Assembly (NCBI GenBank): GCA_937922795.1
Contig: CALAJK010000043.1
Span: forward strand, 1 to 64,000
From: an uncultured Anaerolineae bacterium
GTDB lineage: Bacteria > Chloroflexota > Anaerolineae > Aggregatilineales > Phototrophicaceae
Direction: 5' to 3'
Length of the DNA: 64,000 bases
The translations under genes and the position numbers were made by a program. The notes beneath the pieces were generated by a model. It did no database searches. It was not told the DNA's origin and was given only the letters and a program-made list of their open reading frames with translations. Positions 53,425-54,767 of this stretch are shown piece by piece. The first letter of the stretch is position 1, and the number at the start of each line of letters is the position of its first letter.

Positions 53425-54168
53425 ATGTCCATTGAGTCTGAACGCGATCTGATCGGCCTGCTGCGCATCGGCAGGATTGTCGGGCTGACGCTGCAAACGA
53501 TGCTGGCGCAGGTGCGCCCGGGCATCACCACCGCTGAACTGGACGCCATCGGCGCCGAGTTCTTGAGGCGCGAAGGCGCGCGCTCCGCCCCGATTCTGAC
53601 TTACAAGTTTCCCGGCGCCACCTGCATCAGCCTCAACGACGAGGCGGCCCACGGCATCCCCGGCGACCGCGTGATCGCTGCTGGTGACTTGGTCAATATT
53701 GATGTGTCGGCGGAGCTGGACGGCTACTTCGCCGATACCGGCGCCACCCTGCCCGTGCCGCCGGTCACGCCGCTCAAGCAGAAGCTGGCCGACTGCGCCC
53801 GCGCCGCGCTCGACAAGGGGCTGGCGGCGGCGGTGGCCGGCAACCGCATCTTCGACATCGGCCGCGCCATGGAGAACGAAGTCAAGCGCTGCGGCTTCCG
53901 CATCATCCGCGATCTGCCCGGCCACGGCGTGGGCCGCAAGCTCCACGAGCCGCCCAGCGTCCCCGGCTTCTACACCAAGCACGCCAACCAGATCCTGCCT
54001 GAAGGACTGGTCATCACCATTGAGCCGTTCGTCTCCACCCGCGCCAACCGGATCGTGACCGCCTCCGACGGCTGGACGCTCAAGACGCCCGACGGCAGCC
54101 CGGCGGCGCAGTACGAACACACGGTCGTCATCACCAAAGGCCAGCCGCTGCTGGTCACCGCCGTTTAA
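53425..54168 (+). CDS. map: methionine aminopeptidase type I
   Basis: Removes the initiator Met from new proteins. All five metal ligands are visible: Asp93 and Asp104 (NIDVSAELDGYFADTG), His167 (GHGVGRKLHEPP), Glu200 (VITIEPF) and Glu231 (YEHTVVI), with substrate His76 in DEAAHGIPGD. Length 247 fits type I without extension. Confidence 0.95.
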   Translation: MSIESERDLIGLLRIGRIVGLTLQTMLAQVRPGITTAELDAIGAEFLRREGARSAPILTYKFPGATCISLNDEAAHGIPGDRVIAAGDLVNIDVSAELDGYFADTGATLPVPPVTPLKQKLADCARAALDKGLAAAVAGNRIFDIGRAMENEVKRCGFRIIRDLPGHGVGRKLHEPPSVPGFYTKHANQILPEGLVITIEPFVSTRANRIVTASDGWTLKTPDGSPAAQYEHTVVITKGQPLLVTAV

Positions 54169-54210: not shown

Positions 54211-54291
54211 TGTCACTCACAAATCGTGTCATTATTCACAAAAAAATCGTTTCATTCTCATGCGCCTTCTGGCCTTAACGAGTATTATAAT
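54211..54291 (+). promoter_or_regulatory. repeat-containing promoter region of the avidin-like gene
   Basis: Imperfect direct repeats TGTCAYT-like units begin at 54211, 54227 and 54250, and AATCGTGTCATT at 54222 recurs as AATCGTTTCATT at 54245 (23 bases apart). A perfect TATAAT stands at 54286-54291, 60 bases before the gene. The repeats lie upstream of the -10 where an activator would sit. Confidence 0.5.
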
Positions 54292-54350
54292 CTCATTAAG
54301 ACTAAAATGTCTCTGCTGAGCGCATGGACGCCAGGAAAGGGGTCATCACG

Positions 54351-54767
54351 ATGAAAGGCTTAGCCGGGACCTGGTACGGCCGGCACGGTGCGCGCCTGGA
54401 ACTGACGGTGCAGCACGACGGCACGATCGAGGGGACCTTTTTCACGCCGGGCGATGGGTCCAGCGGCGCTTTCCCGCTGGTCGGCATGTGTGACACCCGT
54501 TCGTTTGAGGGCAGCCGGAGCTTCGGCTTCGTGGTGGTGTGGAACAACGACTACGTCAACCAGCACTCGGCGACCTCCTGGTCGGGCCAGTACCAGATCG
54601 TCAACGGCGAGGAGATGCTGACGACCAACTGGCTGCTGACCCGCGAAACGGCGCCCGAAGAATGCTGGGCGGCCACCATGGTCGGGAGCGACACGTTCCG
54701 CCGGGAATGGGTGGGGGCGGCTGAAGACGCAGCCCAAACGGAACCGCAGGCCGAGCCGGCTGGTTGA
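54351..54767 (+). CDS. avidin/streptavidin-family protein, cytosolic
   Basis: A 138-residue single-barrel avidin homologue. It aligns without gaps to the streptavidin core from GTWY to GTF and again across VWNNDYVNQHSATSWSGQY, NWLLTRE, and CWAATMVGSDTF. Trp64, Trp77, Trp94 and Trp106 match biotin-site Trp79, 92, 108 and 120; Ser73, Thr75 and Asp114 match Ser88, Thr90 and Asp128. But the ureido-oxygen ligands Asn23, Ser27 and Tyr43 are Gly10, Ala14 and Phe30. There is no signal peptide, unlike other avidins. GGGG lies 8 bases before the ATG at 54351. Whether it binds biotin is unknown. Confidence 0.88.
   Translation: MKGLAGTWYGRHGARLELTVQHDGTIEGTFFTPGDGSSGAFPLVGMCDTRSFEGSRSFGFVVVWNNDYVNQHSATSWSGQYQIVNGEEMLTTNWLLTRETAPEECWAATMVGSDTFRREWVGAAEDAAQTEPQAEPAG

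What the first reader, a model, noticed from the sequence alone, without database searches (positions are those of the whole stretch)
54351..54767. Cytosolic avidin homologue with the Trp cage intact but the ureido-oxygen ligands lost
Seen: gap-free alignment to streptavidin from the first Trp to Tyr43, and conservation of all four biotin-site Trp plus Ser88, Thr90 and Asp128 equivalents. Asn23, Ser27 and Tyr43, which together hold the biotin ureido oxygen, are Gly10, Ala14 and Phe30. The protein also lacks a signal peptide, whereas known avidins are secreted. Inference: it may bind a different ligand, a biotinylated protein or biotin weakly and inside the cell. To my knowledge no such natural variant is described.
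Basis: partly seen in the sequence, partly recalled or inferred. Interest (0 to 1): 0.85.

Follow-up and report, generated by a model that had tools for sequence, protein, structure and literature searches.

The report
Cytosolic avidin with eroded biotin grip
A relative of streptavidin that probably stays inside the cell of a bacterium that probably must import biotin keeps the aromatic pocket for the vitamin but has lost all three residues that hold its oxygen, so it may be a loose, reversible biotin store or may have moved to another ligand.

Summary
Window 54351-54767 encodes a Pfam Avidin protein (E 2.6e-22). The Trp cage, Ser88, Thr90 and Asp128 are kept; Asn23, Ser27 and Tyr43 are Gly10, Ala14 and Phe30; the frame leaves no room for a signal peptide. 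Nine homologues from the same Chloroflexota family (10 of 154 genomes of the order, this one included) show two layers. Asn23 is replaced in 9 of 10 (Gly 6, Ser 3); Ser27 and Tyr43 are replaced only in the window protein. Of 34 columns invariant in the other nine, it differs at exactly those two, and it shows no faster protein evolution, although its dN/dS is raised (0.24-0.31 against 0.13-0.18). Eight comparison avidins all keep Asn/Ser/Tyr. Lack of a signal peptide is not new (PMC8033661). The genus has no bioB above cut-off (0 of 17) but has BioY and BirA (17 of 17 each): probable biotin auxotrophy. Best reading: a weakened, reversible intracellular biotin buffer, as storage is reported for rhizavidin (PMC8914248). 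A changed ligand or relaxed constraint is not excluded. No binding was measured. New variant of a known family.

The parts
54351..54767 (+). avidin-family CDS, 138 aa, no signal peptide
   Evidence: PF01382 E 2.6e-22; PDB streptavidin; purine-rich AGGAAAGGGG at 54333-54342 before the ATG
54324..54350 (+). alternative in-frame start (MDARKGVIT), not hydrophobic; the frame is closed by a stop just before 54306
54378..54380 (+). Gly10 codon GGC at the Asn23 position (Gly in 6 of 10, Ser in 3, Asn in 1 of the family)
54390..54392 (+). Ala14 codon GCG at the Ser27 position (Ser in the other 9 of 9)
54438..54440 (+). Phe30 codon TTT at the Tyr43 position (Tyr in the other 9 of 9)
54213..54256 (+). 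two direct repeats of 21 nt (81% alike), spacing 23, upstream of the gene; role unknown, may be chance
53425..54168 (+). upstream neighbour, M24 metallopeptidase (methionine aminopeptidase type); next to the avidin also in L012, L013 and L018
54902..55981 (+). downstream neighbour, YchF-type GTPase; stands where five sister genomes have a MaoC-type hydratase gene

Best explanation
It is a cytosolic avidin that works as a reversible, low-affinity biotin buffer or store in a bacterium that imports biotin. The Trp cage and the groups that meet the ureido nitrogens and the rest of biotin (Thr at 45, Asp128, Ser88, Thr90) still hold the vitamin. The hydrogen bonds to the ureido oxygen have been removed stepwise (by parsimony, Asn23 in the shared ancestor of a clade of six, then Ser27 and Tyr43 in this lineage), so biotin can be given back to BirA and the carboxylases instead of being locked away. 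Shown: homology, pocket residues, their distribution in ten proteins, absence of a signal peptide, no bioB above cut-off and BioY, BirA and biotin/lipoyl domains present in the genus. Inferred: the cytosolic place, biotin binding, its strength, reversibility and the storage role.
For: Five Trp (21, 79, 92, 108, 120), Ser88 and Gly26 are invariant in 10 of 10; Asp128 in 9 of 10. Each of the ten has at least one ureido hydrogen-bond residue changed, by different routes: Asn23 to Gly (6); Asn23 to Ser with Ser45 to Arg (3); Asp128 to Asn (1); Ser and Asn are still polar, so these need not all be losses. No member has a usable start that leaves room for a signal peptide. Genus: bioB above cut-off 0 of 17, BioY 17 of 17, BirA 17 of 17, biotin/lipoyl domains 17 of 17. 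In R. etli, a biotin auxotroph, a rhizavidin mutant shows a storage defect (PMC8914248, abstract and passages). S27A alone moves streptavidin from 1e-14 to 1e-12 M (PMC3712923, passage citing Klumb 1998), and S27A and Y43A structures are in the PDB listing, the former titled 'with Biotin'. Pairwise dN/dS of the window gene against nine relatives 0.16-0.33.
Against: The N23A/S27D/S45A streptavidin is called Dead (PMC5175265, PMC4047826, passages), so several losses in this pocket can abolish binding, though S27D adds a charge and S45A is not seen here. Eight of 17 genus genomes have no avidin hit yet are equally without bioB above cut-off, so the store is dispensable. No shared regulatory site with bioY was seen by eye. 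None of the seven neighbouring window genes scanned is a biotin gene by Pfam. The window gene's dN/dS with its five sisters is 0.24-0.31, against 0.13-0.18 in nine of the ten sister pairs (the tenth, L003-L004, has no amino-acid change), compatible with some relaxation. No binding data.
Confidence: 0.45

Rival explanations
1. Ligand switch: the ureido-oxygen niche was lost because the protein now binds another cytosolic small molecule or a biotinyl or lipoyl carrier protein, with the Trp cage reused.
For: Two conserved ligands of one atom of biotin were lost in one lineage while the other 32 columns invariant in the rest of the family stayed. Five sisters lie directly upstream of a MaoC-type enoyl-CoA hydratase gene (7 nt in three, 93 and 97 nt in two, taking the start aligned with L017), a possible link to acyl metabolism.
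Against: Asp128 and a hydroxyl at 45, which meet the ureido NH groups, are kept. The window copy itself is not next to maoC; its closest maoC lies on another contig (76% identical). No ligand is identified.
Confidence: 0.22
2. Relaxed copy: tight binding is no longer needed, and the protein is drifting in this lineage.
For: Ser27 and Tyr43 are kept in 9 of 9 relatives; both changes are single-base (TCG to GCG, TAT to TTT). dN/dS with the five sisters 0.24-0.31, higher than among sisters, 0.13-0.18. Patchy presence, 9 of 17 in the genus.
Against: In 16 of 16 relative-rate comparisons (not independent) the window protein has fewer private changes than the reference. Open frame, purine-rich ribosome-binding-like site, the other 32 invariant positions kept.
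Confidence: 0.2
3. Defence or competition protein released by lysis that starves other cells of biotin, as proposed for secreted bacterial avidins.
For: Such a role is discussed for bacterial avidins in PMC8033661 (discussion section, part 1 of 2).
Against: No signal peptide in 10 of 10, and loss of affinity residues is the opposite of what sequestration needs.
Confidence: 0.07
4. Sequencing or assembly error at codons 14 and 30.
For: Both are single-base differences from relatives; the genome is a 127-contig assembly, 85% complete, and no reads could be seen.
Against: Two errors would be needed, both changing the amino acid and both at the two ureido-oxygen ligands; by count of invariant columns alone that pair has chance 1 in 561, a post hoc figure.
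Confidence: 0.04

Closest known systems
Streptavidin (Streptomyces avidinii, PDB 1stp, 1mk5)
   Same: Avidin fold (model), 36-37% identity in the Foldseek alignments to these two entries, Trp cage, Ser88, Thr90, Asp128
   Different: No signal peptide; Asn23, Ser27 and Tyr43 replaced; far below the NCBIfam streptavidin cut-off (82 of 300 bits)
Rhizavidin (Rhizobium etli CFN42)
   Same: Avidin family; host is a biotin auxotroph; storage role reported (PMC8914248)
   Different: Rhizavidin has a signal-like N-terminus by eye and keeps Asn/Ser/Tyr; the residue aligned at the Trp120 position is Gly
Signal-less avidin of Streptomyces plasmids (NZ_CP109361.1, NZ_CP108366.1)
   Same: No signal peptide by eye, avidin family (PF01382 1.8e-25)
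   Different: Keeps Asn23, Ser27 and Tyr43
Metavidins and fibropellin avidin domains
   Same: Natural avidin-family proteins with changed biotin contacts (PMC8033661, discussion)
   Different: Fibropellins are said there not to bind biotin; the same passage reports that copying two fibropellin residues, Trp110 to Lys and Trp70 to Arg, into chicken avidin virtually abolished binding. Here the cage is intact and the loss is confined to other ligands. Metavidin sequences were not compared
Engineered streptavidin Dead (N23A/S27D/S45A), S27A, Y43A
   Same: Overlapping positions changed
   Different: Engineered; here natural, with Gly/Ala/Phe and Thr at 45

Membership tests
Avidin family (PF01382) | Profile match above the curated cut-off | tested here: met
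   79.8 bits, cut-off 24, positions 2-115 of 116
Avidin family (PF01382) | Eight-stranded up-and-down barrel | tested here: met
   AlphaFold model with 8 strands, pLDDT 82; Foldseek hits streptavidin, TM about 0.7 by query, 0.8 by target
Avidin family (PF01382) | Biotin-site Trp cage (79, 92, 108, 120) | tested here: met
   All present, 10 of 10 in the local family
High-affinity biotin-binding avidin | Asn23, Ser27, Tyr43 to the ureido oxygen | tested here: not met
   Gly, Ala, Phe
High-affinity biotin-binding avidin | Ser45 and Asp128 to the ureido nitrogens | tested here: met
   Thr (keeps the hydroxyl) and Asp
High-affinity biotin-binding avidin | Measured biotin binding | not testable with these tools
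   -
High-affinity biotin-binding avidin | Tetramer or dimer | not tested
   Only a monomer was modelled
Streptavidin proper (NCBIfam NF047623 equivalog) | Score above 300 bits | tested here: not met
   82.2 bits
Secreted avidin | N-terminal signal peptide | tested here: not met
   Maximum 12-residue hydropathy near the N-terminus -0.13, or 0.73 with the longer start; -0.14 to 1.11 in the nine relatives; 2.09 and 2.53 in two exported avidins; SignalP not available

The most novel reading that the evidence does not exclude
A natural avidin lineage that has fully abandoned recognition of biotin's ureido oxygen inside the cell: either an affinity-tuned intracellular biotin buffer evolved by stepwise removal of the hydrogen bonds famous from streptavidin, or an avidin pocket re-used for a different cytosolic ligand or a modified carrier protein.
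Probability: 0.35. Interest if true: 0.72.

Novelty: new variant of a known kind. Interest (0 to 1): 0.55.

Why it matters
Bacterial avidins have long lacked a clear role. Here is a set of ten signal-less avidins, nine of them in a genus of probable biotin auxotrophs, in which polar ligands of the best-studied protein-ligand pair have changed by different routes while the Trp cage stays the same. That makes the storage-versus-sequestration question testable with ten related natural proteins, and it may offer natural weak or reversible avidins of practical use.

Tried and rejected
Viral contigs and phages: none. A shared operator between avidin and bioY upstream regions was looked for by eye in ten avidin and nine bioY upstream stretches; none seen. 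The avidin-maoC gene order was considered as the key to function and set aside for the window copy because it is missing there. The G352 avidin-like protein (L002) was dropped from the family alignment, tree and counts: it is remote, aligns poorly after the first third and has lost Trp residues; it has Asn, Ser and Phe at 23, 27 and 43. In the eight-control count two rhizobial rows (L076, L079) are near-identical, as are the two Xanthomonas rows (L065, L078), and the Novosphingobium row aligns poorly after position 45; the controls other than streptavidin come from plasmids, a hand-picked 7 of the records listed there.

Not done: docking, oligomer modelling, SignalP, reads. A rough additive estimate of affinity (Kd about 1e-9 to 1e-8 M) rests on values for N23A and Y43F that I recall from Klumb 1998 and did not read; only the S27A value was seen, as cited in another paper. 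That avidin can bind lipoic acid weakly is also recalled; the search for it gave nothing useful. The protease part of the L058 protein, which I first read by eye, was not confirmed by Pfam.

Full report
What is there. The ORF at 54351-54767 (138 aa) is an avidin: PF01382 at 2.6e-22, single streptavidin chains in the PDB from 1.5e-22, a barrel model (mean pLDDT 82) whose 50 listed PDB hits are streptavidin or streptavidin-type entries by title, though some titles do not name the protein. It is the only PF01382 hit in its genome. The genome is an 85% complete assembly of 127 contigs.

Pocket. By the alignment to streptavidin the protein keeps Trp21, 79, 92, 108, 120, Gly26, Ser88, Thr90, Leu110, Asp128 and Phe130. 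Ser45 is Thr. Asn23, Ser27 and Tyr43 are Gly, Ala and Phe. Leu25 is His and the loop 46-49 differs. In print, Asn23, Ser27 and Tyr43 bind the ureido oxygen, and Ser45 and Asp128 the ureido NH groups (PMC4888747, passages).

No signal peptide. The frame is closed just before 54306 and has two usual starts before the barrel, ATG 54324 and ATG 54351; the second has a purine-rich AGGAAAGGGG ahead of it. In the nine relatives the usable ATG/GTG/TTG starts lie within about 15 residues before the first Trp, and N-terminal hydropathy (-0.14 to 1.11) stays below that of two exported avidins (2.09 and 2.53). About half of putative bacterial avidins are reported to have a signal peptide (PMC8033661, discussion part 1 of 2 and passages), so a signal-less avidin is not new in itself; one more was met on Streptomyces plasmids.

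Relatives. PF01382 was found in 2 of 400 genomes sampled over the phylum (this one and a remote G352), in 10 of 154 of the order (9 of the 17 genus genomes and one other in the family), and, with the ten-row alignment, in 4 of 396 of the class, the fourth being G724, a weak match in a long protein (at most ten candidates per genome were scored). In a tree of 13 proteins the window protein falls in a clade of six of the same genus (support 96/93), in which the other five group together (86/83); three more form a second clade (100/98) and L005 stands alone; rooting is by midpoint and two outgroups are very long.

The three residues. Asn23: Gly in six (the window clade), Ser in three, Asn in one. 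Ser27: Ser in nine, Ala in the window. Tyr43: Tyr in nine, Phe in the window. Of 34 columns identical in the other nine, the window protein differs at two, Ser27 and Tyr43; a random pair would be these two with chance 1 in 561, a post hoc figure. The same leave-one-out for the other nine members gave other positions or none; L005 has nine, among them Asp128 to Asn. In 16 relative-rate comparisons (4 outgroups by 4 references, 122 codon columns, not independent) the window protein has fewer private changes than the reference in all 16, only one of them with chi-square above 3.84. Against this, its dN/dS with its five sisters is 0.24-0.31, while nine of the ten sister pairs give 0.13-0.18 and the tenth has no amino-acid change (dS is often near 1, so values are rough). 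Over all nine relatives it is 0.16-0.33. So the gene is constrained but perhaps less so than its sisters. Eight comparison avidins (streptavidin and seven plasmid-borne proteins, about six lineages) all have Asn, Ser and Tyr.

The wider pattern. In this family each of ten proteins has at least one polar ureido ligand changed, by different routes (Asn23 to Gly; Asn23 to Ser with Ser45 to Arg; Asp128 to Asn), whereas five Trp do not change in any of the ten. Some replacements are still polar. I read this as weaker polar holding of biotin, or of something like it, with the hydrophobic hold kept; that is inference.

Host context. In the 17 genus genomes bioB scored above its cut-off in 0 (all 17 have weak matches, which I take for other radical-SAM proteins; the control set rang above cut-off in 7 of 14), BioY in 17, BirA in 17, biotin/lipoyl domains in 17. 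So the genus probably imports biotin and uses it. Other biotin-synthesis genes were not searched. In R. etli, an auxotroph, loss of rhizavidin sharpened growth decline without biotin and the authors infer storage (PMC8914248, abstract and passages). A store must let go of biotin, and in streptavidin S27A alone costs about two orders of magnitude (PMC3712923, passage). The Dead variant N23A/S27D/S45A shows that several changes can end binding (PMC5175265, PMC4047826, passages). Where the natural Gly/Ala/Phe lies between these cannot be computed here.

Neighbours. The window order is M24 peptidase, avidin, YchF GTPase. In L012, L013, L017, L018 and L019 (five of the six in the window clade) the next gene downstream is a MaoC-type hydratase, 7 nt away in three and 93 and 97 nt in two (four of the five were scanned with Pfam); the one tested resembles (R)-specific enoyl-CoA hydratase RipB/Ich below cut-off. 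The window genome has its closest copy on another contig (76% identical), and avidin-less G446 and G452 have one too. The link is real for the sisters but its meaning is open.

Literature limits. Ten paper searches were made. The one for avidin with Chloroflexi and 'biotin-binding protein' returned 0 papers, as did one on natural avidins with low affinity or loss of binding; the main survey does not mention Chloroflexi in its main text (I read its results, part of the discussion and passages). I found no report of a natural avidin lacking all three ligands, but the survey's sequence files and most subscription papers were not seen, and its Metavidins are said to carry many changes.

Verdict. 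A true and unusual avidin, a new variant of a known family. Most likely a weakened intracellular biotin buffer; a ligand change and relaxed constraint are the main rivals.

Noticed in passing
L058:784-2934 minus strand (G724, class sample): A 717-residue ORF in a Chloroflexota genome with an Avidin match at 430-478 (PF01382 2.8e-8). By eye the front looks like a pepsin-like protease and a second avidin-like stretch follows, but Pfam named neither; protease-avidin fusions are described in other phyla in PMC8033661.
   Followed up: partly
L012, L013, L017, L018, L019: An avidin gene directly upstream of a MaoC-type enoyl-CoA hydratase gene in five genomes, whose genes upstream of the avidin are not all the same.
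   Followed up: partly
L002 (G352), minus strand 1489-1851: Remote avidin-like protein in a Chloroflexota genome with Phe at the Tyr43 position and Trp residues lost.
   Followed up: no
L062 and L063: Two different Streptomyces plasmids carry a 100% identical signal-less avidin, suggesting recent transfer.
   Followed up: no
window 54213-54256: Two 21-nt direct repeats spaced 23 nt in the AT-rich stretch before the avidin gene.
   Followed up: no
L003, about 75-190 bases upstream of the avidin start: Short tandem copies of a unit like GGGCTAAAGCCCACTGTCTTGGCTGAAACCCGCTGGCAAC before the avidin gene (seen by eye).
   Followed up: no
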